A stretch of DNA of 64,000 nt from contig CM020618.1 in the NCBI GenBank assembly GCA_009829735.1, forward strand, positions 41,779,030 to 41,843,029, written 5' to 3'. The notes beneath the pieces were generated by a model. It made no database searches. It was given only the letters and a program-made list of their open reading frames with translations, and had not been told where the DNA came from. Both the position numbers and the translations under genes were made by a program. The stretch comes from Pyropia yezoensis (Eukaryota > Rhodophyta > Bangiophyceae > Bangiales > Bangiaceae). This document shows, one piece after another, positions 1 to 64,000 of the stretch (the stretch's first letter is position 1; each line of letters opens with the position of its first letter).

Positions 1-3000
1 CGAGTAGCGACCCGAAGTCCGGAAAGGAGAAGCACCAAGCCAAGTCGGCCGCCTCTCCTCGGCCCCATGTGAACATGGAGGGTGTTCCACCCAGGTTGAG
101 GGTTCAAGTTGAACGCCTCTTGGACCAATACCACAGGTTGTGGGACGGTCAATTGGGACTCATGAGAGCCACCCAACACCGGATCGAGTTGAAGCCCGGT
201 GCACCCCCTATACGCCAACAACCGTATAGGGGAGGACCCCGTTCAAGGGCCCTCGTTAAGGAGCAAGTTGCTCGCATGGAGGCCCTCGATGTGATCGAGG
301 CCAGTAACGCCGAGTGGGCGAGTCCGGTGGTTATCGTCCCCAAAGTTGATGGGACCCCACGGTTCTGTATCGACTACCGTAAGCTCAACGAGAGCACGGT
401 GAAGGACAGTTATCCCCTACCTAGGATTGATGACTGTCTGGACTCTCTGGGGGAGGCAAACGTGTTCTCTACCCTGGACTGTAACGCGGGGTACTGGCAA
501 ATTCCCATTGCCCCGGAGGACAGGCATAAAACTACCTTTACCTGTCACTGTGGTACCTACCAGTGCAAGCGCCTACCGTTTGGACTGTGCAACGCGCCGG
601 CAACTTTCCAGCGCGCTATGGACATGATTCTGGCCGGAGTACGGTGGCAGATCTGTCTCGTGTACCTAGACGATATCATTGTGTTCTCCCGAAGTCCGGA
701 GGAACACATTGGCCATCTTGGCCAGGTGTTCAAGCTACTTGCTGACGCCGGTGTGTCACTGAAGGCGAGTAAGTGCCACCTCTTCACTCAAGAGGTGGAA
801 TACTTGGGACATGCTGTCCGTCCGGGGCGCCTCAGTGTCAACGAGAAAAACTTGATGGCCATCCGTAAGGCTCAGTACCCCCGGACACAGACCCAGATGA
901 GGAGCTTCCTCGGGATGTGTAACGTGTACCGACGTTTCACCAAGGGCTTCGCCAAGGTGGCGAAGCCGTTGAATGAGCTAGTGAGCTCAACGCTACCGAA
1001 GAACCTGCCTCCCCCAAGTCGGGTGGAGCAGGAATCCTTTGAGACTCTTCGGGACCTTCTGCTGAAGCCCCCTATCCTGGCTATTCCCAGGTTGGGAGGC
1101 CACTACATCCTGGATGTGGATGCTAGCTACGACCAACTTGGTTGTGTGTTGCTTCAGCAGCAGCCGGACAAGGAGTTCTTGCCGGTGGGATACTTCAGCA
1201 AGGGGCTGAACTCGGCCGAGAAGAACTACGGAGTCACCGAGTTGGAAGGACTCGCAGTGGTGTGGGCGGTGACGTCACTTCGTCACTACCTGGAGGGTGA
1301 GAAGTTCCTCATCCGCTGTGACCACCGCGCGTTGCAGTTCATCTTCAAGACGGATTGTACGAACACTCTTCTCAACCGGTGGAGGGTGCGACTGGCACCC
1401 TTCAACTTTGATATTGAGTACCGACCTGGCAGGCAACATGCCCTGGCCGACGGCCTTTCTCGGGTACCTACCGAGGGGCTGGACACTAACCCAGTCGATG
1501 AGGACATCCCTATCGGGGGGGTAGTCACGCGCTCGGGTCAGGCGTTGAACCCCGAGGCGCCAGGGAACAAGAAGTACTTGCCCTTGTCCCTGGACGAGGT
1601 GGTGAAGGCCCAGGCCAAGGATCCCTTCTGCAAGTCGCAGAGGGATACACTGGATACAGTGGCGGAGACGCGGTTCTTTTTCGGAGACGATGGCCTCCTC
1701 ATGAGGAGGGGGGTATTCCAGGGGACCGAACAACTTGTCGTCCCCGCATCCCTCAAGGACAGTATCCTTGAGAGGGTGCATAACGCTCCCACAGGTGGAC
1801 ACCTGGGGTCTAGTAAACTGTACCAGACCCTGAGGACCAGGTACTACTAGCCGTCCATGGTGGTGGACATCTACAGTTGGGTGGCTGCCTGCACAAGTTG
1901 TGCACAGAACCGCATGATGGAACGGCGGCCTAGTACGGCTATGCTATTGTTCCCGGCCAAGGAGCCCTTTGCCGCGTTGGCGATGGACATCCTTGGGCCA
2001 CTGCCAGTGACCGAGGAGGGCAACCAGTACCTCCTGGTCATCTGTGACCGCTTCACGAAACTTACGCGAGCGATCCCACTGGCAGAGATCACGGCCATGT
2101 CGGTCGTGACAGCCTTCCTAGATCACTGGGTTGCCGCGTATGGCATTCCGGATAGTACACTATCGGACAATGGACCGCAATTTGCGTATGTACTGTTTCA
2201 GGGAGTGCTGGATATGTTGGGGGTCAAGGCAACTATGCTACCCCCTACCACCCACAAACTAATGGGCAGGTGGAGCGCTTCAACAAAACTATTGTTCGGC
2301 AGCTGCGCTGCTACGTGAGTGAGCACGTGAAACGTGGGACCAATACATTTCTATTCTTACCACTGCCTACAATTCGCAGGTTCACTCATCTACCGGGGAA
2401 GTACCCCTTGCTTTTGTGACCTCCCACCGCGTGCGGTCTATTGCCGTGCGGCGGCCGCTCCCAACTAGGGAGGATGGTGGCAGTACGCCTACTCCTACTG
2501 AGAGTAAGGCGGAGTTCGCTGCTAGGCTTGAAGAACTCATCCCTAAAGTCAGGGCTGAGATGGACAAAGCACAAAAGCACTACAAGCGTACCTTTGACAA
2601 AAAGGTGCGCAATGCTAAGCATGTCCCCGAGCAGGGTGACTGGGTATTGGTTCACTCACACACCCCAACTGGGGGTAAGTTGGTATTCCAGACGAAGGGG
2701 CCGTACCAGGTCCTTCGTACTGAAGGGCGGCGCTTCACCATCGAAAGTGACGATGGGGTCCGCACAGTGAACGGACAGGACGTGGTCAAAGTTGCACCAC
2801 CGCCTGCAGGCGACCCAGCTTGGGCGCGTGCGTTGGAAGCGTGGCGCCTCCCCTCGCTTCCTGCGGCCAAACAGGGCCCACAGGAGTACGTGTTCGATAA
2901 GTTCATCGACCACGGCTGGGATGAGGACACTGACCGCCTCATGTTGAGGGTGCGTTGGTTTGGCTACAAAGCCAAGGATGATACGTGGGAGTATGTGGAG

Positions 3001-3075
3001 GACCTTCCCGCTGAGAGGTTCCGGGCATACTGTGCCCGGAATGAGATAGACCCTAACAGCCCTCCCTCAACGTGA
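1..3075 (+). pseudogene. pol: Ty3/gypsy pol (RT-RNase H-integrase-chromodomain), decayed
   Basis: The reading frame is open from the left edge (codon phase starting at base 3). It encodes a reverse transcriptase with the YLDD catalytic box near 662-676, then RNase H (DVDAS near 1117-1131, TELEGLAVVW near 1237, RCDH near 1315). The integrase zinc finger (HLGSSK, then CTSC near 1890) and integrase core (MDILGP near 1983, LSDNGPQF near 2164) follow, and a chromodomain (about 2880-3040) ends the protein. Three lesions break it. An in-frame TAG at 1848-1850 replaces the Trp codon present in the other copy. One-base losses near 2230 and near 2331 shift the frame twice, so the last catalytic Glu region of integrase is out of frame. 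The final frame runs 2416-3075 and ends at the same stop as the right copy. It is probably non-autonomous. Confidence 0.92.
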
Positions 3076-3186
3076 GGGAAGGCCGAGTAACTGTGCCAAG
3101 AGAGTGCTTCAAGTCGAAGTGGTACGCAGAGTGGCTTTTAACTACAGCCCTAACCCTCACACTCTCACAACAAAGGCAGCTGCCAA

Positions 3187-5130
3187 CTAGGCATGCATGC
3201 TAGACTCTCCAACCCCACGGCCCTCGCCCTCACGTGGAGGCGAGCGGCGAGACCCACGGCGATAACGCTCCCCACCAGTCGGCGGGGCCGGCGCCTCCAA
3301 GTCGGAACCGTCGCGCCCCTCACGGTCGTGCAAGTGGCGACGACCGCGGCTGCCCTTCTGTTTATTCTTGCGCGCAAGTTGGCGACGCAGACGCCGGACC
3401 GACTCCGACTCTGACGGAGTCGAGGACTCCGAGACGGAGTAAGACAACTCGTCTTCCGACACGGAGGGAGAGCGCCGCGAGCGTCGGCGACGACGGCGAG
3501 GAGGCGAGTATGCCCGGCTCGCACGACGTTTGCCACGCCCAAGTGGGGCTGGCTGGGGCATAATAGCCCCAATGCGAGCCAACTCGGCCGTCATAAACTC
3601 CGCCACCGACTCGCAACTCGCGGTCGCCACTGCAGTACGAACGCGCTCCTCAAGTTGAGGAGTCTCGGAAGTTTGAAGGGTTGCGGTCGACGTCGCCAAC
3701 CAGGAAATGGTGCGCACCAACGTGGTGATCATCATCTCTGAGGTTAGAGGCGCGGGCGGTAACACCAACTTGGGGTACACCGTCAGGAGGGAGGCCCCCA
3801 AGTTGGGGGACATCGGGGTGGACGACTCAACGGCCACGCTAATCGGGATGTCCCCGTGCGGCTGGTAGGGGACAGGAGGAAGTAGAGGGGCACGCCGAGG
3901 TGGCGGTACCCGGATGTAACTGCGACCCCGACTTGGGGCCCCCGCAGTGGGTTGAGTCATATGGTCATCATGTGAGGGCACGGCCATAACTATGGCCTTG
4001 TCCGGGGGTGGCGCAGTGTGGCGATCCACCCCCGGGGCATACGGGTAGTCCCCGATGCCCAACCCCTCTCGTAGGACCACACGGCCGTCGTGAAGTTCAC
4101 GAGCGACCCACACGAACTGGCGAAGTGCGCCATCGTCCTTGGGCCCACGAGTGGGGCGGCGCAACTTGTGCTCAATGCTCTCCCACTCGATAAACTTGTG
4201 GAGGCGGAGCATCTCCTCAAGTAGAGTGAGTTGTCCTGATGAGCACCCGTCAGCAACTAGCTGAGGGGTGAGCTGTTCCAAACCTTGCATAAGCCGGAGG
4301 GGGAGATGCCAGAGCATCCCCCGCCGCTGAACACAAGACACCCAGGTCGACATGATCTCGAGGAGCCACTGGGTGGCCAACATGGCCCACACCAGATGAT
4401 CCGGGCTAGCCGTCAACATGACGGAGCCGAAGTGGTCGAGCAACCGTGGCAGCAACGCCGGGAACCCGTAGGGGACCTCAACTTGAGGCCACCACTCGGG
4501 CTTCTTCGGATAGTACTGCTCCTTACTGGCGGAAGACTGCTGAGGAAACTCAAGTTGAGCCGAGGTCACCAAGTAGGGACCTCGCCGGAAGTCCTTCTCC
4601 ATCCGCACATCAAAGTGATGAGTGTGCGGATCGGCCTCGTGAAGGTACGGGGGGCGAATTGCCACCGCGTCCCAAGTAAAGGTCGGCAAGTCGCCGGGAC
4701 CCGGGATAGTTCCCCCGCGGTCCACCATGGCCTTGGCCCGCTGTACGTCTTCGACCTCCTCGTCGTCCAGGAAGGCAAACTGGTCCGTCCTGAAGCCGGC
4801 AGGGAACCCGACCCTACGGGGATACTTCTCCCGTAGGCGGTCCCATACCCGACCAATCGCTGCGCCAAGTCTGCCACAGCGAAGAACAGTCAACCCCTCC
4901 TCATACAGAGGCCAAGCGGGATAAAACCACCGCCCCAAGGCCTCACGCGGGACAACTTGTCCCGCCTCCGGGGGAGATCCCGCCGTCAACCCAAAGCCGG
5001 GTGACGCGGGAGTCCCATCCCCCGGAGCGATCGCGGAGCCCCCGCCGGAAGTCCCGGCGGGCGCTGCACCGTAGGAGGTGTCCTCCATACGTTCATCGAG
5101 AGAGTCCGTCTCCACCCCCGGGGTCGCCAT
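3187..5130 (-). CDS. Antisense ORF of the chromovirus (aORF), 647 aa, function unknown
   Basis: This ORF lies between pol and the 3' LTR on the strand opposite to pol. The first ATG (5128-5130, MATPGVETDSLDERMEDTS) gives 647 codons. The frame is open further upstream to 5301 without an ATG. The right-hand copy encodes an ORF of exactly the same 647 codons, with only substitutions between them, whereas pol in both copies is broken. The protein has a Gly/Ala/Pro-rich N-terminus, a central folded-looking region (about residues 80-350, rich in Trp, Leu and His, with motifs such as PYGFPALLPRLLDHFGS and FIEWESIEHKLRRP) and a Pro-rich linker. A C-terminal Arg/Ser tract (SPPRRRRRRSRRSPS, then VRRLRRQLARK) resembles SR or nucleic-acid-binding tails. 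I recognise no family. Antisense ORFs in this position are known in some plant Ty3/gypsy elements (Tat lineage, for example Grande), but I see no proof of homology. Confidence 0.75.
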   Translation of the reverse strand: MATPGVETDSLDERMEDTSYGAAPAGTSGGGSAIAPGDGTPASPGFGLTAGSPPEAGQVVPREALGRWFYPAWPLYEEGLTVLRCGRLGAAIGRVWDRLREKYPRRVGFPAGFRTDQFAFLDDEEVEDVQRAKAMVDRGGTIPGPGDLPTFTWDAVAIRPPYLHEADPHTHHFDVRMEKDFRRGPYLVTSAQLEFPQQSSASKEQYYPKKPEWWPQVEVPYGFPALLPRLLDHFGSVMLTASPDHLVWAMLATQWLLEIMSTWVSCVQRRGMLWHLPLRLMQGLEQLTPQLVADGCSSGQLTLLEEMLRLHKFIEWESIEHKLRRPTRGPKDDGALRQFVWVARELHDGRVVLREGLGIGDYPYAPGVDRHTAPPPDKAIVMAVPSHDDHMTQPTAGAPSRGRSYIRVPPPRRAPLLPPVPYQPHGDIPISVAVESSTPMSPNLGASLLTVYPKLVLPPAPLTSEMMITTLVRTISWLATSTATLQTSETPQLEERVRTAVATASCESVAEFMTAELARIGAIMPQPAPLGRGKRRASRAYSPPRRRRRRSRRSPSVSEDELSYSVSESSTPSESESVRRLRRQLARKNKQKGSRGRRHLHDREGRDGSDLEAPAPPTGGERYRRGSRRSPPREGEGRGVGESSMHA

Positions 5131-5455
5131 GGCTCTCCCCGAGTTGGGGAGAGACGCCCTGGCTATAGCGGCACGAGACCCGCCTCGAGTTGAGGGGGAC
5201 TCGGATCGTGGGCGGACGGGTGGCCTCCCCAGCGTGGGGCGGCCCTGGGGAAGGTGACGGGGATGTGGTGGTGATGGTGAAGTGCGAACCGGGGAGAGCA
5301 AGCTGCCGAGTGGGCAAGCTTGAGGAGAGGGGCGGTCAACGTGACCGCCTCCATATCCGCGTTACGTACTCAAGGGGGGACAGCAAGTCGCGCCCCCAAC
5401 GCCGAGACGTGCGTTTACGCACCCCCTCACAGGGCCGACCGGGTCGGTCGGCACT

Positions 5456-5468
5456 GAGGAGAGGGGAG
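5456..5468 (+). other. Polypurine tract of left chromovirus
   Basis: This 13-base all-purine run (GAGGAGAGGGGAG) immediately precedes the TGTGGCA start of the LTR, where plus-strand priming is expected. The right copy has the same tract at 56158-56170 on the other strand. Confidence 0.85.
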
Positions 5469-5936
5469 TGTGGCAGTATTGACCCCCAGGTAGGGGGGCA
5501 ACACGTGCCATGCAAGGGGCGGCAGGCCACTGGCCTGATCCGTTCCTCCCCCTGCATTTGAGTCCATATTCCTTAAGTTTGGGATAGTTAGCTTAGTAGT
5601 AAATCCAACTTGGATTTGAGGGTTTTCTGCATTTATCGTCTTGAATTTTCGTGTGGCCCGATGGGCAGGTGCTGGGGTGGGAGATTCTGAGTGGCGAGAT
5701 TCTGAGGGGACCCTGAGGGGATAAGGGGAGGGACAGCGGGGCTTGGCCCTGCGTCCCCGTCCCGACCAAGAAACTGTTGGACCACACACCATCTTCTTGT
5801 TTGTCAGTGCGGAGATTGCCCCACAACAGGAATAGAGTGTGTGCGACTTGCACTTCTTCCGGTTCCCCCGACACGGGAGGCAGCCCTTGTACACCGCCCC
5901 AACTTGGGTGCCGTGTGTGCGAGTGTTTTTGCCACA
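5469..5936 (+). repeat. 3' LTR of left chromovirus (468 bp)
   Basis: The repeat starts TGTGGCA directly after the polypurine tract and ends TGCCACA, a perfect 7-bp terminal inverted repeat of the TG...CA type. The matching LTR of the right copy is 55689-56157 (469 bp). Homology between the two copies stops exactly at this boundary. A 17-bp odd palindrome lies inside at 5601-5617. Confidence 0.9.
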
Positions 5937-41795: not shown

Positions 41796-42035
41796 TTGGT
41801 ACAGTTTAATACGGCCAGGTCCAGGGTTGTCGATGGGCCCGTCGGGTCGCCAACGACAGCCTGGCCGGCCACTGGGCGTGAGCGTGTTCACGTCCCCCAA
41901 TGAGGGTAAACAGCGTGCCACCTTGGAGGTAGGCAGGCAGATAAGAGAAGCAAAAAGAGAGAGAGGAGAGAGAGAGAGCGACAAGAAGGCGGCTGAGATG
42001 GCCGCCTACGGGCGTCAAGCCGGGAAGGTGGGTGG

Positions 42036-42239
42036 GGCGCGAGGGCAAACGAACGTGCCGGCCGACGACGGCCGGTGCGTGACCCCCCGCGCCTCGCCTC
42101 TTGAACACCGTCGGGCGGCCAGGTGGCCGCACTGCGCCGGATACCCCAAGTAGCCCGTCCCCCCCCTCCGCCGGGGAGATCGGGATCCCACCCGCTAGGC
42201 GGACGCATAACGCCTTAAACCTCACAAGCAAGACACATT
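42036..42239 (-). repeat. Split direct repeat A2 of the YR retroelement (204 bp)
   Basis: A near-identical direct copy of A1 at 47097-47300, of equal length (204 bp) with a handful of substitutions. The internal ORF begins inside the region next to A1, and the YR stop codon lies at the B1/A2 border. Confidence 0.93.
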
Positions 42240-46925: not shown

Positions 46926-47096
46926 GACAAACGTCGTAGACGACGGGGGAATGATCCCTAACGCTGCTACCGTCAGGCGGGAGCAGCAAAGTGTGTACCA
47001 AGCGGCCTTGAAGAGACGAGCCGAGAGCCCGAGCGCCGATCCGCCTCCCGCGGCCACACGACTGCGTCGGGGTGGCCACGCACGCGGGGGGGGTCT

Positions 47097-47300
47097 GGCG
47101 CGAGGGCAAACGAACGTGCCGGCCGACGACGGCCGGTGCGTGACCCCCCGCGCCTCGCCTCTTGAACACCGTCGGGCGGCCAGGTGGCCGCGCTGCGCCG
47201 GATACTCCAAGTAGCCCGTCCCCCCCCTCCGCCGGGGAGATTGGGATCCCACCCGCTAGGCGGACGCATAACGCCTTAAACCTCACAAACAAGACACATT
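47097..47300 (-). repeat. Split direct repeat A1 of the YR retroelement (204 bp)
   Basis: This is the outer 5' repeat of the element, matching A2. Its outer edge (after GACACATT on the plus strand) marks the right boundary of the insertion. It probably holds the element's promoter, by analogy with the family. Confidence 0.9.
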
Positions 47301-55688: not shown

Positions 55689-56157
55689 TGTGGCAAAAAC
55701 CACTTGCACACACGACACCCAAGTTGGGGCGATGTACAAGGGCTGCCTCCCGTGTCGGGGGAACCGGAAGAAGTGCAAGTCGCACACACTCTGTCCCTGT
55801 TGTGGGGCAAACACCCCACTGACAAACAAGAGGATGGTGTGTGGTCCAACAGTTTCTTGGTCGGGACGGGGACGCAGGGCCAAGCCCCGCTGTCCCTCCC
55901 CTTATCCCCCCAGGGTCCACTCAGAATCTCGCCACTCAGAATCTCCCACCCCAGCACCTGCCCACCGGGCCACACGAAAATTCAAGACGATAAATGCAGA
56001 AAACCCTCAAATCCAAGTTGGATTTACTACTAAGCTAACTATCCCAAACTTAGGGAATACGGACCCAAATGCAGGGGGAGGAACGGATCAGGCTAGTGGC
56101 CTGCCGCCCCTTGCATGGCAGGTGTTGCCCCCGTACCTAGGGGTCAATACTGCCACA
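55689..56157 (-). repeat. 3' LTR of right chromovirus (469 bp)
   Basis: On the minus strand it starts TGTGGCA (56157) right after the polypurine tract GAGGAGAGGGGAG (56170-56158) and ends TGCCACA (55689). It matches the left LTR. The flanks beyond the two LTRs are unrelated, as expected for independent insertions or a breakpoint at the LTR edge. Confidence 0.9.
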
Positions 56158-56494
56158 CTCCCCTCTCCTCAGTTCCGACCGACCCGGTCGGCCCTGTGAG
56201 GGGGAGCGTAAACGCACGTCTCGGCGTTGGGGGCGCGACTTGCTGTCCCCCCTGGAGTACGTAACGCGGATGTGGAGGCGGTCACGTTGACGGCCCCTCT
56301 CCTCAAGCTTGCCCACTCGGCAGCTTGCTCTCCCCGGCTCTCACTTCACCATCCCACCACCTCCCCTTCACCTTCCACTGGGCCGCCCCACGCTGGGGAG
56401 GCCACCCGTCTACCCACGATCCGAGTCCCCCTCAACTCGAGGCGGTTCTCGTGCCGCTGTAGCCAGGGCGTCTCTCCCCAACTTGGGGAGAGCC

Positions 56495-58438
56495 ATGGCG
56501 ACCCCGGGGGTGGAGACGGACTCTCTTGACGAGCGCATGGAGGACACCTCCTACGGTGCAGCGCCCGCCGGGACTTCCGGCGGGGGCTCCGCGATCGCTC
56601 CGGGGGATGGGACTCCCGCGTCACCCGGCTTTGGGTTGACGGCGGGGTCTCCCCCGGAGGCGGGACAAGTTGTCCCGCGTGAGGCCTTGGGGCGGTGGTT
56701 TTACCCCGCTCGGCCTCTATATGAGGAGGGGTTGACTGTTCTTCGCTGTGGCCGACTTGGCGCAGCGATGGGTCGGGTATGGGACCGCCTACGGGAGAAG
56801 TATCCCCGTAGGGTCGGGTTCCCTGCCGGCTTCAGGACGGACCAGTTTGCCTTCCTGGACGATGAGGAGGTTGAGGACGCTCAGCGTGCCAAGGCCATGG
56901 TGGACCGCGGGGGAACTATCCCGGGTCCCGGCGACTTGCCGACCTTTACTTGGGACGCGGTGGCAACTCGCCCCCCGTACCTTCACGAGGCCGATCCGCA
57001 CACTCATCACTTTGACGTGCGGATGGAGAAGGACTTCCGGCGAGGTCTCTACTTGGCGACCTCGGCTCAACTTGAGTTTCCTCAGCAGTCTGCTGCCAGT
57101 AAGGAGCAGTACTATCCGAAGAAGCCCGAGTATTGGCCTCAAGTAGAGGTGCCCTACGGGTTCCCGGCGTTGCTGCCACGGTTGCTTGACCACTTCGGCT
57201 CCATCATGCTGACGGCTGGCCCTGATCATCCGGTGTGGGCCATGTTGGCCACCCAGTGGCTCCTCGAGGTCATGTCGACCTGGGTGTCTTGTGTTCAGCG
57301 GCGGGGGATGCTCTGGCATCTCCCCCTCCGGCTTATCCAAGATCTGGAACAGCTCACCCCTCAGCTATTTGCTGAGGGGTGCTCATCAGGACAACTCACT
57401 CTACTTGAGGAGATGCTCCGCCTCCACAAGTTTATCGAGTGGGAGAGCATTGAGCACAAGTTGCGCCGCCCCACTCGTGGGCCCAAGGACGATGGCGCAC
57501 TTCGCCAGTTCGTGTGGGTCGCTCGTGAACTTCACGGCGGCCGTGTGGTCCTACGAGAGGGGTTGGGCATCGGGGACTACCCGTATGCCCCGGGGGTGGA
57601 TCGCCACACTGCGCCACCCCCGGACAAGGCCATAGTGATGGCCGTGCCCTCACATGATGACCATATGACTCAACCCACTGCGGGGGCCCCAAGTCGGGGT
57701 CGCAGTTACACCCGGGTCCCGCCACCTCGGCGTGCCCCTCCGCTTCCTCCTGTCCCCTACCAGCCGCACGGGGACATCCCGATTAGCGTGGCCGTTGAGT
57801 CGTCCACCCCGGTGTCCCCCAACTTGGGGGCCACCCTCCTGACGGTATACCCCAAGTTGGTGTTACCGCCCACGCCTCTAACCTCAGAGATGATGATCAC
57901 CACGTTGGTGCGCACCATTTCCTGGTTGGCCGCGTCGACCGCAACCCTTCAAACTTCCGAGACTCCTCAACTTGAGGAGCGCGTTCTTACTGCAGTGGCG
58001 ACCGCGAGTTGCGAGTCGGTGGCGGAGTTTATGACGGCCGAGTTGGCTCGCATTGGGGCTATTATGCCCCAGCCAGCCCCACTTGGGCGTGGCAAACGTC
58101 GTGCGAGCCGGGCATACTCGCCTCCTCGCCGTCGTCGCCGACGCTCGCGGCGCTCTCCCTCCGTGTCGGAAGACGAGTTGTCTTACTCCGTCTCGGAGTC
58201 CTCGACTCCGTCAGAGTCGGAGTCGGTCCGGCGTCTGCGTCGCCAACTTGCGCGCAAGACTAAGCAGAAGAGCAGCCGCGGTCGTCGCCACTTGCGCGAC
58301 CGTGAGGGGCGCGACGGGTCCGACTTGGAGCCGCCGGCCCCGCCGACTGGTGGGGAGCGTTATCGCCGTGGGTCTCGCCGCTCGCCTCTACGTGAGGGCG
58401 AGGGCCGTGGGGTTGGAGAGCCTAGCATGCATGCCTAG
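56495..58438 (+). CDS. Antisense ORF of the right chromovirus copy, 647 aa, function unknown
   Basis: This is the counterpart of 3187-5130, again on the strand opposite to pol and intact for 647 codons from ATG 56495. Amino-acid differences are scattered: ATRPP versus AIRPP, RGLYLAT versus RGPYLVT, EYWPQ versus EWWPQ. The Arg/Ser-rich tail is kept. A 21-bp odd palindrome ends two bases before this ATG (56472-56492), in the same place as in the left copy. The absence of stops or indels here, while pol has three lesions, suggests either recent selection or chance. A dN/dS estimate would separate these. Confidence 0.75.
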   Translation: MATPGVETDSLDERMEDTSYGAAPAGTSGGGSAIAPGDGTPASPGFGLTAGSPPEAGQVVPREALGRWFYPARPLYEEGLTVLRCGRLGAAMGRVWDRLREKYPRRVGFPAGFRTDQFAFLDDEEVEDAQRAKAMVDRGGTIPGPGDLPTFTWDAVATRPPYLHEADPHTHHFDVRMEKDFRRGLYLATSAQLEFPQQSAASKEQYYPKKPEYWPQVEVPYGFPALLPRLLDHFGSIMLTAGPDHPVWAMLATQWLLEVMSTWVSCVQRRGMLWHLPLRLIQDLEQLTPQLFAEGCSSGQLTLLEEMLRLHKFIEWESIEHKLRRPTRGPKDDGALRQFVWVARELHGGRVVLREGLGIGDYPYAPGVDRHTAPPPDKAIVMAVPSHDDHMTQPTAGAPSRGRSYTRVPPPRRAPPLPPVPYQPHGDIPISVAVESSTPVSPNLGATLLTVYPKLVLPPTPLTSEMMITTLVRTISWLAASTATLQTSETPQLEERVLTAVATASCESVAEFMTAELARIGAIMPQPAPLGRGKRRASRAYSPPRRRRRRSRRSPSVSEDELSYSVSESSTPSESESVRRLRRQLARKTKQKSSRGRRHLRDREGRDGSDLEPPAPPTGGERYRRGSRRSPLREGEGRGVGEPSMHA

Positions 58439-58549
58439 TTGGCAGCTGCCTTTGTTGTGAGAGTGTGAGGGTTAGGGCTGTAGTTAACAGCCACTCTGCG
58501 TACCACTTCGACTTGAAGCACTCTCTTGGCACTGTTGCTCGGCCTTCCC

Positions 58550-61500
58550 TCACGTTGAGGGAGGGCTGTTAGGGTCTATCTCATTCCGGGTACAGTACGC
58601 CCGGACCTTCTCAGCGGGAAGGTCCTCCGCATACTCCCACGTATCATCCTTGGCCTTATAGCCGAACCAACGCACCCTCAACATGAGGCGGTCAGTGTCC
58701 TCATCCCATACGTGGTCGATGAACTTATCGAACACGTACTCCTGCGGGCCCTGTTTGGCCGCAGGCAGTGAGGGGAGGCGCCACGCTTCCAAAGCACGCG
58801 CCCAGGCTGGGTCGCCTGCAGGCGGTGGTGCAACTTTGACCACGTCCTGTCCGTTCACTGTGCGGACCCCATCGTCACTTTCGATGGTGAAGCGCCGCCC
58901 ATCAGTACGAAGGACCTGGTACGGCCCCTTCGTCTGGAATACCAACTTACCCCCAGTTGGGGTGTGTGAGTGTACCAGCACCCAGTCACCCTGCTCGGGG
59001 ACATGTTTAGCATTGCGCACCTTTTTGTCAAAGGTACGCTTGTAGCGCTTTTGTGCTTTGTCCATCTCAGCCCTGACTTTAGGGATGAGGTTTTCAAGCC
59101 TAGCAGCGAACTCCTCCTTACTCTCAGTAGGAGTAGGCGTACTGCCGCCATCCTCCCTAGTTGGGAGCGGCCGCCGCACGGCAATAGACCGCACGCGACG
59201 GGGGGTCACAAAAGCGAGGGGTACTTCCCCGGTAGATGAGTGAACCTGCGAATCGTAGGCAGTGGTAAGAATAGAAATGTATTGGTCCCACGTCTTCACG
59301 TGCTCACTCACATAGTGGCGCAGCTGCCTAACAATAGTTTTGTTGAAGCGCTCCACCTGCCCATTAGTTTGTGGGTGGTAGGGGGTGGCATAGTTTGCCC
59401 GCACCCCCAACATATCCAGCACTCCCTGAAACAGTACAGACGCAAATTGCGGTTCATTGTCCGATAGTGTACTATCCGGAATGCCATACGCGGCAACCCA
59501 GTGATCTAGGAAGGCTGACACGACTGACATGGCCGTGATCTCTGCCAGTGGGATCGCTCGCGTAAGTTTCGTGAAGCGGTCACAGATAACCAGGAGGTAC
59601 TGGTCGCCCTCCTCGGTCACTGGCAGTGGCCCAAGGATGTCCATCGCCAACGCGGCAAAGGGCTCCTTGGCCGGGAACAATAGCATAGCCGTAGTAGGCC
59701 GCCGTTCCATCAGACGATTCTGTGCACAACTTGTGCAGGCAGCCACCCAACTGTAGATGTCCACCACCATGGACGGCCAGTAGTACCTGGTCCTCAGGGT
59801 CCGGTACAGTTTACTAGACCCCAGGTGTCCACCTGTGGGAGCGTTATGCTCCCTCTCAAGGATACTGTCCTTGAGGGATGCGGGGACGACAAGTTGTTCG
59901 GTCCCCTGGAATACCCCCCTCCTCATGAGGAGGCCATCGTCTCCAAGAAAGAACCGCGTCTCCGCCACTGTATCCAGTGTATCCCTCTGCGACTTGCAGA
60001 AGGGATCCTCGGCCTGGGCCTTCACCACCTCGTCCAGGGACAGGGGCAAGTACTTCTTGTTCCCTGGCGCCTCGGGGTTCAACGCCTGACCCGAGCGCGT
60101 GACTACCCCCACGATGGGGATGTCCTCATCGACTGGATTAGTGTCCAGCCCCTCGGTAGGTACCCGAGAGAGGCCGTCGGCAAGGGCATGTTGCCTGCCA
60201 GGTCGGTACTCAATATCAAAGTTGAAGGGTGCCAGTCGCACCCTCCACCGGTTGAGACGAGTGTTCGTACAGTCCGTCTTGAAGATGAACTGCAACGCGC
60301 GGTGGTCACAGCGGATGAGGAACTTCTCACCCTCTAGGTAGTGACGAAGTGACGTCACCGCCCACACCACTGCGAGTCCTTCCAACTCGGTGACTCCGTA
60401 GTTCTTCTCGTTAACACTGAGACGCCCCGGACGGACAACATGTCCCAAGTACTCCACCTCTTGAGTGAAGAGGTGGCACTTACTCGCCTTCAGTGACACA
60501 CCGGCGTCAGCAAGTAGCTTGAACACCTGGCCAAGATGGCCAATGTGTTCCTCCGGACTTCGGGAGAACACAATGATATCGTCTAGGTACACAAGACAGA
60601 TCTGCCACCGTACTCCGGCCAGAATCATGTCCATAGCGCGCTGGAAAGTTGCCGGCGCGTTACACAGACCAAACGGTAGGCGTTTGCACTGGTAGGTACC
60701 ACAGTGACAGGTAAAGGTAGTTCTATGCCTGTCCTCCGGGGCAATGGGAATTTGCCAGTACCCCGCGTTACAGTCCAGGGTAGAGAACACGTTTGCCTCC
60801 CCCAGAGAGTCCAGACAGTCATCCATCCTAGGTAGGGGATAACTGTCCTTCACCGTGCTCTCGTTGAGCTTACGGTAGTCGATACAGAACCGGGGGGTCC
60901 CATCAACTTTGGGGACGATAACCACCGGACTCGCCCACTCGGCGTTGCTGGCCTCGATCACATCGAGGGCCTCCATGCGAGCGACTTGCTACTTAACGAG
61001 GGCCCTTGAACGGGGTCCTCCCCTATACGGTTGTTGGCTTATAGGGGGTGCACCGGGCTTCAACTCGATCCGGTGTTGGGTGGCTCTCATGAGTCCCAAT
61101 TGGCCATCCCACAACTTGTGATATTGGTCCAAGAGGCGTTCAACTTGAACCCTCAACCTGGGTGGGACACCCTCCATGTTCACATGGGGCCGAGAAGAGG
61201 CGGCCGACTTGGCTTGATGCTTCTCCTTTCCGGACTTCGGGTCGCTACTTGCGCCCGCGTTGAGGGTGGCCGCTACTACCGGTCCCTCATGTTGGTCGAT
61301 ATAGCCGAACTTGGCTCCCGACTTGAAGTACTTGGGCGACGAGCTCAGGTTCATAACCTGGATCCTCCACGGGACTCCGGCTTTGGAGTCCATCGTGCCA
61401 AGGGCGACATGCACTTGGTGCTTGCGAGCAAGACGGGGGTGAGGGTGCACCAACCCGTTCCCCGTATAATCAGTTACAACATCAACGTGCGCCACCGAGT

Positions 61501-62158
61501 TGGGGGGCAACGTGACTTTACGGGCTAAACGCAGGGTAGCAGTAAACCCTTCCCTCACAGAGCAAACAGGCTTCGACTGTGAGACTGTCACAGGAGCCAC
61601 AGACTTTCCCTTACCAAGGATGGGGATAGTCTCCCCATTCATCAACTTGACCCAGTACTCAGGGCCACAAATCAAAGGCACTTGTGTAACAACATAAGGG
61701 GTACCCAGAAGCTGGGGTACCGATATATTCTCAACTACACCATAGGTCACGTCGACCTCATGGGTCCCCAACCTAGTTGGTAGGGTTACGGCACCAACGA
61801 TGGGAAGTACCCCACCATTGATATCGATCAGATGGTCAGCTTTAGACTTCCAGCGTTGGAGCTTCATCTCCTTTGGTTATAGCGACTTGCGTATCAAGGA
61901 GGCTCCTGACCCGGTATCAAGTACGATACGGGCACAACAGGCGCGGCCGGGGGCAAGTTGCACCCGTCCAGCCACCTGAAAGTTCTCAACCGTCACCACC
62001 GCGATGACCCGACGTGGGTTTACGTTCTTGGGAAGTCCTACCCGAGGTGGGCGGACTCCCTTAGGTCGCCGCAGTATCCGGCACAGTTGGTTCGTCCTCC
62101 TGGCCCACTTGGCCGAGGCTGCCGTTGTGAGCTTCGGACGGCCAGCTCCAACGGTCAT
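58550..62158 (-). pseudogene. pol: Protease-RT-RNase H-integrase-chromodomain, decayed
   Basis: The frame begins at ATG 62158, overlapping the gag stop. An aspartic protease motif (VLDTGSGASLI, near 61910) is followed by an in-frame TAA at 61877-61879, then RT sequence. A TAG at 60989-60991 replaces a Glu codon seen in the left copy. RT with the YLDD box continues to a fused AACGAG/AAGAAC junction at 60401-60412, where 375 bp (125 codons) present in the left copy at 852-1226 are missing. That removes the RT connection region and the first RNase H catalytic Asp. Downstream, integrase keeps its zinc finger and all three catalytic motifs (MDILGP, LSDN, GQVERF), and the chromodomain is intact to the stop at 58550. 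The frame is otherwise continuous. Confidence 0.92.
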
Positions 62159-64000
62159 TCGTTTCCCGCCGACTTGGCGTCCGAATCTGAGGACAAAGGG
62201 GAAGACGACGAGTCCGAGGACGACGTGTCCGCCCCCTTCGTCGAGGGTGTGGCGACCGCTACCACCGGTCGAGACCCACCCTCGCGGCGTGAACGTACGT
62301 CGTTCGTAACCAACTTCTTACTCGCGTTCCTAACAAGTTGTTTGATGCGTTTACTCAACTTGGGGCAGTCATATGCCCAGTGTCCGTCGGAGTTGCAGTT
62401 CCAACACCGATTGTCAGTTCCCGGAGGGGTCTTCCCAACTGGGGAAGACGAAGAGATACCCTGGGAAGTTCCCACGGCAGCTACCACCCTCTCCTTGCGG
62501 ATTCGGCGTGCCTCTCTCAGCTCTCTGGCCTGGCGCGCCTCCTCCCGTTCCTTGGCCAACTCGGCTTGACGCTCCTGGCGTTGTTCCTCCCGCAACTTGC
62601 GGTAGGCCTCGCCTCTGCGGTAGGCGAACCTAGCCAACTCGGACAGGGTCGCCCGGGCAGTGTTATGCTCCCGGGTCTCCATCCGGACTGACCAATGGAG
62701 TCCCTCCACAAACCGACTCTTCACCACAGCTTGTGGATGAAGAAACCCACAAAGATTGTTGAGCTTACGGACTCGCTCCGCAAAGGACAACTCGTCCTCC
62801 GCCTCTTCCTGATGGGCTTGCGTAGACTCCTCGACTTGAGAAGCCAACGCCGCTTCATCAACCATGGCCCTCAACAACCAGTTGACGAGCTCCAAATAGG
62901 ACGTCACCTCCCCAGCGCCTCCACTTGAGGAGCTGGGCATGACGGACATAAGTTCTGTCCGTAGGTCGCCCTTCGTAAACTCCTGTAGCATGTAAAAAGC
63001 CATGCCTTCACTTATGGCATTGTCGTCACAGGCTTTTGTGAAACGACGTAGGAACTCAAAGACACGGAGGGGGGGAGTTCCATCCCACTCCGCTTTGTGC
63101 CCAAAAGAGTGAAGTGCATTCTTCTTGGCACGGCCCATGGCTCGGGCCTGGTCAGGACCATACGCCACCGACTTGTTGTGGAGGGCGTAGGTCTCACAAT
63201 CAAAGATCCTCTGGTAGACCGGGTTGGCTACCTGGATCTTGGGCGGCACCTCACGTTGAGGGAGCAGCCGCTGTGGCACTGGGGTAAGTTCACCCTCAGT
63301 GCCTGTAGTCCGGCGCGGCGCGCTTGGTGTAGCCGCCGGCGTTGCCGGGGGGAACTCCCCCATGAAGGGCGTATGCCCCACCGAGTATGGTGTGGCTCCC
63401 TCGTTGGGAGTCACAGGTGTCGCCCCCTGTTTGGGGCGACCCGAGATAGGCGTGAGGGGGGATCCCCCCTGCGCCTGCGGGCTCGAAAGCCCCGATCCGG
63501 TCTGGACATTAAGGCCATCTGGCAAACTCGCCACAATCTGATTCAGAATAGTATTCGTCATCGTGACCACCAGGTCCGGCAAAGTCTGCCGCAACACATT
63601 GGTCGCCTCCCGACGGACAGTTTCCGCGAGGAGTGGATTGACGACTCCAGTTGAGTCTCGGTCCGCCTCCGGGAGTCCACCTGAGGGGTAACCACGATCC
63701 TCAGGGGTCTCAACCGGGTGCATGGGCGCGAGCCCATCGCCGACCAACGGAGGTCCGCCGTCCTCCGAAAGCCTAGTTGGCGACGGCTCCAAGCCAAAGT
63801 TGGCCTCATCCCGAGTGGAACCCGCGGGGACAGTCCTCACCCCTTGGGACGTTCCCGTTGAGTATACCACACGGTGGCCAGACTTCGGCCCACCCACATC
63901 AGAAGTGTCACCCGAGTGAACTCCCGACTGAGTCGGGGTGGCCTGTTGCCCGCCCGTACTTCCAGTCCTGCTGGCTTGAGGGACCTCCAGTCCCTCTGCG
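62155..64000 (-). CDS. gag: Gag of the right chromovirus (N-terminus beyond window)
   Basis: The frame is open from the right edge to a TGA at 62157-62155. A Pro/Gly/Ser-rich N-terminal half leads to a capsid-like helical region (about 63300-62580: FLRRFTKACDDNAISEGMAF, SYLELVNWLLRAMVDEAAL, VKSRFVEGL). A charged coiled stretch (REEQRQERQAELAKEREEAR) follows, then one CCHC zinc knuckle (CWNCNSDGHWAYDC, near 62420-62380). The C-terminus is Ser/Asp-rich. The stop overlaps the pol ATG as ATGA, with pol in the -1 frame. No lesion is seen in the part present. Confidence 0.85.
   Translation of the reverse strand, partial: AEGLEVPQASRTGSTGGQQATPTQSGVHSGDTSDVGGPKSGHRVVYSTGTSQGVRTVPAGSTRDEANFGLEPSPTRLSEDGGPPLVGDGLAPMHPVETPEDRGYPSGGLPEADRDSTGVVNPLLAETVRREATNVLRQTLPDLVVTMTNTILNQIVASLPDGLNVQTGSGLSSPQAQGGSPLTPISGRPKQGATPVTPNEGATPYSVGHTPFMGEFPPATPAATPSAPRRTTGTEGELTPVPQRLLPQREVPPKIQVANPVYQRIFDCETYALHNKSVAYGPDQARAMGRAKKNALHSFGHKAEWDGTPPLRVFEFLRRFTKACDDNAISEGMAFYMLQEFTKGDLRTELMSVMPSSSSGGAGEVTSYLELVNWLLRAMVDEAALASQVEESTQAHQEEAEDELSFAERVRKLNNLCGFLHPQAVVKSRFVEGLHWSVRMETREHNTARATLSELARFAYRRGEAYRKLREEQRQERQAELAKEREEARQARELREARRIRKERVVAAVGTSQGISSSSPVGKTPPGTDNRCWNCNSDGHWAYDCPKLSKRIKQLVRNASKKLVTNDVRSRREGGSRPVVAVATPSTKGADTSSSDSSSSPLSSDSDAKSAGNE

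What the first reader, a model, noticed from the sequence alone, without database searches (positions are those of the whole stretch)
55689..64000. Dispersed mini-hairpins with a near-invariant C(AASTT)G loop throughout one retroelement family
Almost every AACTT/AAGTT in this chromovirus sits at the centre of an odd palindrome of 11-21 bp. Read as hairpins they have perfect 4-8 bp stems of unrelated sequence, a C-G closing pair and a pentaloop AASTT. Clear cases: 56472-56492 (stem CTCTCCCC), 56660-56678 (stem GCGGGAC), 56009-56025 (LTR, stem AAATCC), 57816-57830, 57963-57979, 57066-57076, 59723-59737, 61138-61150, 62332-62342 and 62590-62602. In the left copy: 102-114, 261-273, 1132-1142, 3646-3662, 3795-3809, 4947-4965, 5601-5617. 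More than twenty others keep the stem and change one loop base (GACTT, CAGTT, TAGTT, AACTC, AACTG), for example 62429-62449 (stem GTCTTCCC, loop AACTG). They lie in gag, pol, the antisense ORF and the LTR, in different codon phases, so neither codon use nor protein motifs explain them. In the unique DNA between the copies, the few AACTT/AAGTT sites I checked (11349, 13535, 29204) are not palindromic. They could be protein or Gag binding hairpins, replication or packaging structures, small-RNA precursors, or footprints of tiny palindromic insertions.
Basis: seen in the sequence. Interest (0 to 1): 0.88.

Follow-up and report, generated by a model that had tools for sequence, protein, structure and literature searches.

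The report
Selected hairpin arrays in algal retrotransposons
A jumping gene present in hundreds of copies in this genome carries dozens of tiny perfect hairpins along its length that evolution appears to have kept, and two related jumping-gene families carry similar arrays with a different loop, so the hairpins probably do a job that is not yet known.

Summary
In the right copy 46 of 304 NA[CG]TN pentaloops sit on perfect stems of 4 bp or more; 500 dinucleotide shuffles average 1.1 (maximum 5). All 18 listed palindromes check out. The rule needs correcting: loop bases 2-4 (AST) are the conserved part, bases 1 and 5 vary, the closing pair is usually C-G, and stems of 3 bp already count (about 70 per 8.3 kb). 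The inner pairs are strictly Watson-Crick, and both strand orientations occur.

They are not insertions: in pol they lie in alignable codons. Mutations private to single copies break hairpins freely (47 of 671). Changes shared by several copies rarely do (2 of 246), and 5 create them. That points to selection on the replicating lineage.

Two related families in the same genome carry dense arrays with 4-nt loops at unrelated positions. Fifteen random loci without the family, and ten loci of other LTR elements, show NASTN stems only at background level.

Best reading: many dispersed recognition hairpins read by a co-evolving element protein, perhaps for RNA packaging or compaction.

The parts
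55689..64000 (-). right element copy, cut by the window end; 46 NASTN hairpins with stem >=4, 74 with stem >=3
55689..56157 (-). 3' LTR (TG...CA, 469 bp)
56291..58438 (+). antisense ORF, 715 aa; 15 hairpins with stem >=4
58553..60988 (-). pol part with RT, RNase H, integrase and a sub-cutoff chromodomain match; 12 hairpins with stem >=4; lacks 375 bp present in the left copy
60992..61876 (-). upstream pol frame, no Pfam match; 3 hairpins with stem >=4
62158..63999 (-). gag with one CCHC zinc knuckle, open at the window end; 10 hairpins with stem >=4
1..5935 (+). left copy, inverted, 36 NASTN hairpins with stem >=4
56009..56025 (.). LTR hairpin AAATCC(AAGTT)GGATTT
56472..56492 (.). hairpin, stem 8; closing pair mismatched in five of six older copies
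56564..56584 (.). hairpin, stem 8
56660..56678 (.). hairpin, stem 7, built stepwise from older to younger copies
57355..57381 (.). hairpin, stem 11; loop ASTs intact in most copies, changed to AAATA (sense) in this copy
57816..57830 (.). hairpin, stem 5
57963..57979 (.). hairpin, stem 6
59723..59737 (.). hairpin, stem 5, in the integrase zinc-binding region
59855..59875 (.). hairpin, stem 8
60226..60244 (.). hairpin, stem 7
60454..60476 (.). hairpin, stem 9, in conserved RT codons
61620..61638 (.). hairpin, stem 7
62429..62449 (.). hairpin, stem 8, loop AACTG

Best explanation
The element carries an array of roughly 60-70 short hairpins (at least 3 Watson-Crick pairs of any sequence, usually closed by C-G, around a pentaloop n-A-S-T-n) through LTR, gag, pol and antisense ORF. 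Shown: the array and its loop rule; that pol hairpins lie in alignable codons and so arose by substitution; that mutations shared between copies spare them while private ones do not; that two related families carry dense arrays of their own with 4-nt loops at other positions. Inferred: that selection on the replicating lineage keeps them; that each is one of many weak recognition sites for a nucleic-acid-binding protein of the element (the Gag zinc-knuckle region or the basic antisense-ORF protein) whose preference differs between families; and that together they drive selective packaging or compaction of the element's RNA (or first-strand DNA), as dispersed packaging signals are proposed to do in RNA viruses.
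For: 46 of 304 against 1.1 by shuffling, also against codon shuffles. Shared changes hit 7 of 304 stem and loop 2-4 sites against 237 of 2864 flank and other sites, p = 4e-5, while private changes hit stems, flanks and the rest alike (0.206, 0.219, 0.208 per site); loop bases 1 and 5 vary freely (8 of 44). Losses 2 of 246 shared against 47 of 671 private changes, p = 4e-5. Stepwise building of 56660-56678 with changes in both arms. Related families L021 and L016 have arrays with another loop size, z 25 and 12, at non-coinciding pol positions. Dispersed stem-loops sharing a loop motif read by coat protein are the packaging-signal model (PMC6281560, abstract and passages).
Against: No G-U tolerance at the three inner pairs and no clear strand preference, odd for a sense-RNA hairpin. 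No compensatory stem change seen. Stems against flanks alone is only p = 0.07. Gains are p = 0.017 by change but p = 0.12 by hairpin.
Confidence: 0.42

Rival explanations
1. Both-strand or DNA structure: the hairpins must form on sense and antisense transcripts (the element has an antisense gene), for instance to keep the two from annealing into double-stranded RNA, or they act as hairpins in single-stranded or supercoiled DNA. The loop motif then reflects loop stability or loop-loop contact.
For: Inner pairs are Watson-Crick only, G-U 2 and A-C 3 against about 31 each if tolerated; ACT and AGT centres both common (29 and 45, p = 0.08); loop motifs of the L021 family are strand-symmetric too (TA, CA/TG); folding scores are low on both strands. 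Antisense transcription is known for plant elements with antisense ORFs (PMC7264820, passages).
Against: A small lean of folding to the sense strand in all three families, each non-significant. Stems of 3 bp cannot extrude as cruciforms (recalled). Antisense transcription was not observed here.
Confidence: 0.27
2. A copying process writes palindromes: during reverse transcription the growing strand folds back at preferred loops and copies its own arm, so perfect arms appear without function; the loop preference belongs to each family's reverse transcriptase.
For: Perfect Watson-Crick arms of any sequence, strand symmetry, no length change, family-specific loop size, absence from ordinary host DNA.
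Against: Such a process should often carry a mutation from one arm to the other; none was seen in 22 loci x 18 copies or 28 hairpins of the L021 family (by eye). At 56660-56678 changes within one step fall in both arms. Conserved RT and integrase codons carry long hairpins with the protein kept.
Confidence: 0.17
3. Footprints of tiny palindromic insertions.
For: Palindromes with one core and unrelated arms.
Against: 11 of 12 pol hairpins align with the seven relatives displayed without a gap.
Confidence: 0.01
4. Composition or codon usage.
For: GC-rich DNA favours stems: other loops give 72 of 7919 with stem >=4 against 31 at 1/256, and several GC-rich host loci show a mild hairpin excess.
Against: Dinucleotide and codon shuffles, mirror and register controls, host loci and other LTR loci stay near background for NASTN.
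Confidence: 0.01

Closest known systems
Multiple dispersed packaging signals of RNA viruses (MS2 model; PMC6281560, abstract and passages read)
   Same: Many dispersed stem-loops with variable stems and a shared loop motif, under selection.
   Different: Here strictly Watson-Crick inner pairs, no clear strand preference, stems down to 3 bp, and an LTR retrotransposon; no binding protein shown.
Genome-scale ordered RNA structure of viruses (recalled; only a search listing seen)
   Same: Folding scores below shuffles along much of the element.
   Different: Here the excess is tied to one loop length and motif per family and is almost as strong on the antisense strand.
Ty3 genomic RNA structure and dimerisation palindromes in yeast (PMC11381356, passages read)
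   Same: Ty3/gypsy element; short palindromes, one in a hairpin loop, serve RNA dimerisation.
   Different: The passages describe six palindromes at the 5' end, one functional, not an element-wide array; 'loop motif' and 'packaging signal' do not occur in its text.
Plant LTR elements with antisense ORFs between pol and 3' LTR, such as Grande and Retand (PMC7264820, passages read)
   Same: An antisense ORF in the same place, of unknown function.
   Different: Homology to those ORFs was not tested; 'hairpin' and 'secondary structure' do not occur in that review's text.

Membership tests
Dispersed packaging signals | Many stem-loops with a shared loop motif along the genome | tested here: met
   46 of 304 against 1.1 expected; 69 of 268 fixed sites with three fixed pairs
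Dispersed packaging signals | Motif under selection in replicating genomes | tested here: met
   shared against private changes, with the reservations given
Dispersed packaging signals | Acts on the packaged sense RNA | tested here: inconclusive
   no G-U tolerance, both loop orientations, weak sense lean in folding
Dispersed packaging signals | Bound by coat or Gag protein and promotes assembly | not testable with these tools
   needs binding and assembly assays
Genome-scale ordered RNA structure | Folding energy below shuffles along the genome | tested here: met
   mean z -3.13 sense and -2.60 antisense in 27 windows, host -0.43 and -0.70
Ty3/gypsy chromovirus | RT, RNase H, integrase order | tested here: met
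   Pfam matches in this order
Ty3/gypsy chromovirus | C-terminal chromodomain | tested here: inconclusive
   E 4e-5 but 23.9 bits against a cut-off of 25.1; over the cut-off in the related L016
Tiny palindromic insertions | Length difference against relatives at the site | tested here: not met
   11 of 12 pol hairpins without gap

The most novel reading that the evidence does not exclude
A lineage of chromovirus-like elements with an antisense gene has evolved a genome-wide, strand-symmetric hairpin code: dozens to over a hundred short, strictly Watson-Crick hairpins per element, with a loop size and motif that is a family dialect (pentaloop nASTn; tetraloop nYRn closed by G-C; a third tetraloop family), read by a co-evolving element-encoded protein that tells own from foreign nucleic acid and works on both strands.
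Probability: 0.3. Interest if true: 0.92.

Novelty: new variant of a known kind. Interest (0 to 1): 0.8.

Why it matters
Dispersed packaging signals are proposed for RNA viruses but are hard to prove from single genomes (the second half is my own judgement). Here one nuclear genome holds three related element families with different loop rules and many copies (a hairpin of each occurs 889, 630 and 37 times), and neutral decay of dead copies is a built-in control, so the rule can be read statistically and tested. If a protein reads the loops, the families are natural specificity variants for finding it. If reverse transcription itself writes palindromes, that would be a mutational process worth knowing.

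Tried and rejected
Tiny insertions and composition or codon use were rejected. I looked at whether the loop motif mirrors integration targets: the nine 5-bp LTR flanks I could read show no AST rule, and only one solo LTR (L015) showed the duplication (ATACT) on both sides. Comparing copies with the right copy as reference gave a misleading 2.5-fold drop of divergence in stems (0.015 against 0.038), because the hairpins were defined in that same copy; pairs of other copies showed little difference, and I then separated private from shared changes. The locus list keeps hairpins present in at least 5 of 18 copies, a mild bias of the same kind; one search has no such list. The lower stem divergence between L021 and L018 (17 of 319 against 175 of 1619, p = 0.002) may be due wholly to that bias (a hairpin counted if intact in either copy) and is not used as proof. 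A wobble test in L021 found A-C over G-U (62 to 22) against 964 to 586 at distant spacings, and in L016 50 to 20 against 802 to 451; suggestive of the antisense strand at most. Relatives: none in viral contigs; in prokaryote genome contigs none, then two distant loci without arrays. The antisense ORF has one close database relative; a single-sequence fold of its residues 59-715 was poor (mean pLDDT 40.6), so no fold search was made. Literature: ten searches listed nothing describing such arrays; the library is open-access only. A slip in my notes: entry 2 gives 4/888 for L037-L046; sums to 3 of 888.
Full report
WHAT IS THERE. The right element (55689-64000) is a Ty3/gypsy element read on the minus strand: 3' LTR 55689-56157, antisense ORF 56291-58438 on the plus strand, pol 58553-60988 and 60992-61876, gag from 62158 to the window end. 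Its chromodomain match is just below the curated cut-off (23.9 against 25.1 bits). The left copy (1-5935) is inverted and about 97% identical. The genome held has 107.5 Mb in 11 contigs. A 19-bp and a 27-bp hairpin of this family (the second with one free loop base) have 786 and 889 exact matches in it.

OBSERVATION. All 18 listed palindromes are correct. Of 38 AASTT sites in the right copy, 14 have a stem of 3 or more and 10 of 4 or more. The loop class is wider: NA[CG]TN, 46 of 304 with stem >=4, against 1.09 +- 1.04 in 500 dinucleotide shuffles (maximum 5); other loops 72 of 7919, NA[AT]TN 1 of 67. Synonymous-codon shuffles average 0.4-0.9 per ORF against 3-15 observed. Mirror symmetry gives 1 of 302, shifted arms 0-11. 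Stem length has a threshold at 3 bp: k=2 16 seen and 15.5 expected from other loops, k=3 28 and 4.5, k=4 23 and 2.0. Across copies 69 of 268 fixed NASTN sites have three fixed pairs; density is 8.5 per kb in the LTR, 11.2 in the antisense ORF, 7.8 in pol, 7.0 in gag, and none in the 132 bp after the LTR.

THE RULE. Closing pair C-G in 30 of 46; oriented to ACT, loop base 1 is mostly A or G and base 5 mostly T; loops whose bases 1 and 5 would pair other than A-T give 0 of 64 in the right copy and 1 of 48 in the left. The three inner pairs are Watson-Crick: 2 G-U and 3 A-C seen, against about 31 each if they were tolerated like Watson-Crick pairs (G-U figure, A-C by the same arithmetic). Sense-strand centres are G 45 and C 29, p = 0.08. 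Spacing is slightly more even than random subsets of NASTN sites (CV 0.73; 2.9% of 2000 draws as low).

WHERE ELSE. Of 20 random 10-kb loci, three hold family copies (L022 52 of 329 NASTN with stem >=4, L023 45 of 325, L028 32 of 324) and two hold an LTR end or solo LTR (L014 6 of 146, L015 3 of 112); the other 15 together give 30 of 2401. Ten loci found with the integrase HMM and not of this family give 3 of 888. L016 and L021 are related elements (RT 58% and 62% amino-acid identity over 196 residues) with antisense ORFs alike in sequence (E 6e-8 and 3e-10 for the single comparisons). They have NASTN stems at background (3 of 238, 1 of 233) but are full of 4-nt-loop hairpins: with stem >=5, 108 in L021 (z = 25) and 42 in L016 (z = 12). 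L021 prefers G-C closing (136 of 185 with stem >=4) and a TA, CA or TG centre; L016 leans to C-G closing (65 of 124) and an AT centre. One hairpin of each occurs 630 and 37 times in the genome. L018 is partly a second copy of the L021 family (89.7% over 1834 bp). Against a clean contrast: several GC-rich host loci show a milder general hairpin excess (L015 z 4.2, L009 z 3.7 for 4-nt loops), L024 shows z 5.5, partly in G/C runs, and one other LTR locus, L038, has 10 five-nt-loop hairpins with z 7.5 although its NASTN count is 1 of 92; none was pursued. Hairpin positions in pol do not coincide between families (1 of 6, 0 of 9, 3 of 33, against 0.6, 0.3 and 1.7 expected).

HOW THEY AROSE. Eleven of 12 pol hairpins with stem >=4 align with the seven relatives displayed without a gap; the twelfth (59158) lies at a length-variable spot. 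Residues under hairpins agree less with relatives than others do (386 of 803 against 5004 of 8190), as if some protein positions gave way, or as if hairpins settle where the protein is free.

SELECTION. Eighteen copies over the 3' 3.2 kb form a ladder with mostly longer terminal branches in the older copies, as expected of one active lineage leaving dead copies (midpoint root). Dropped: L033 (same place as L004), L001 and L029 (the window and L028 again), L014 and L015 (LTR only). The copies are two sets of search hits, the window's two and three random ones, not a random sample. Private changes fall alike on stems, flanks and the rest (0.206, 0.219, 0.208 per site). Shared changes: stems 6 of 238 sites, loop bases 2-4 1 of 66, loop bases 1 and 5 8 of 44, flanks 21 of 351, rest 216 of 2513; stem plus loop 2-4 against flank plus rest p = 4e-5, stems against flanks alone p = 0.07. 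By effect: 671 private changes make 2 hairpins and break 47; 72 old-to-young substitutions make 5 and break none; 174 other shared changes make none and break 2. Losses 2 of 246 against 47 of 671, p = 4e-5; gains 5 of 246 against 2 of 671, p = 0.017, but p = 0.12 if counted as three hairpins. Three of the five gains are in 56660-56678, whose old, intermediate and young states improve step by step through changes in both arms and the loop. Sites shared by descent are not independent, so the p values are optimistic. A pairwise test showed little. No compensatory pair was seen by eye.

MECHANISM. Many weak dispersed sites fit the packaging-signal model (PMC6281560, abstract and passages). Lack of G-U tolerance and both loop orientations do not fit a simple sense-RNA hairpin and keep open a role on both strands or in DNA. 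Folding scores lie below shuffles on both strands (mean z, sense and antisense: this family -3.13 and -2.60, L021 -2.51 and -2.33, L016 -1.03 and -0.86, host window -0.43 and -0.70; one 1-kb piece -10.2 and -7.8), with a small lean to sense that is not significant in any family (p 0.10, 0.23, 0.10).

VERDICT. The array is real, is not explained by composition or insertion, shows signs of selection, and has counterparts with another loop in two related families; the function is inferred only.

Noticed in passing
L021 and L016 (whole loci): Related elements with dense 4-nt-loop hairpin arrays and other closing and loop preferences.
   Followed up: partly
window 56291-58438 (+); L016 2872-5511 (+); L021 2696-4147 (+): Antisense ORFs alike in sequence in all three families, without Pfam match; the window's one has a basic, serine-arginine rich C-terminal part.
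   Followed up: partly
window 60404 against left copy 1222: The right copy lacks 375 bp of pol that the left copy has.
   Followed up: no
L038: Ten five-nt-loop hairpins with stem >=5 (z 7.5) in another LTR element, with a NASTN count at background.
   Followed up: no
L024 4500-10000: Excess of 4-nt-loop hairpins (z 5.5), partly in G/C runs.
   Followed up: no
L015 5653-6121: Solo LTR of the family with a 5-bp target duplication ATACT.
   Followed up: no
L034 3679-4386: A stretch 39% identical to the family's pol, on the strand of the family pol's opposite orientation, next to the family copy.
   Followed up: no
window 42027-42239 and 47088-47300: A 213-bp direct repeat, 97% identical, 5061 bp apart.
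   Followed up: no
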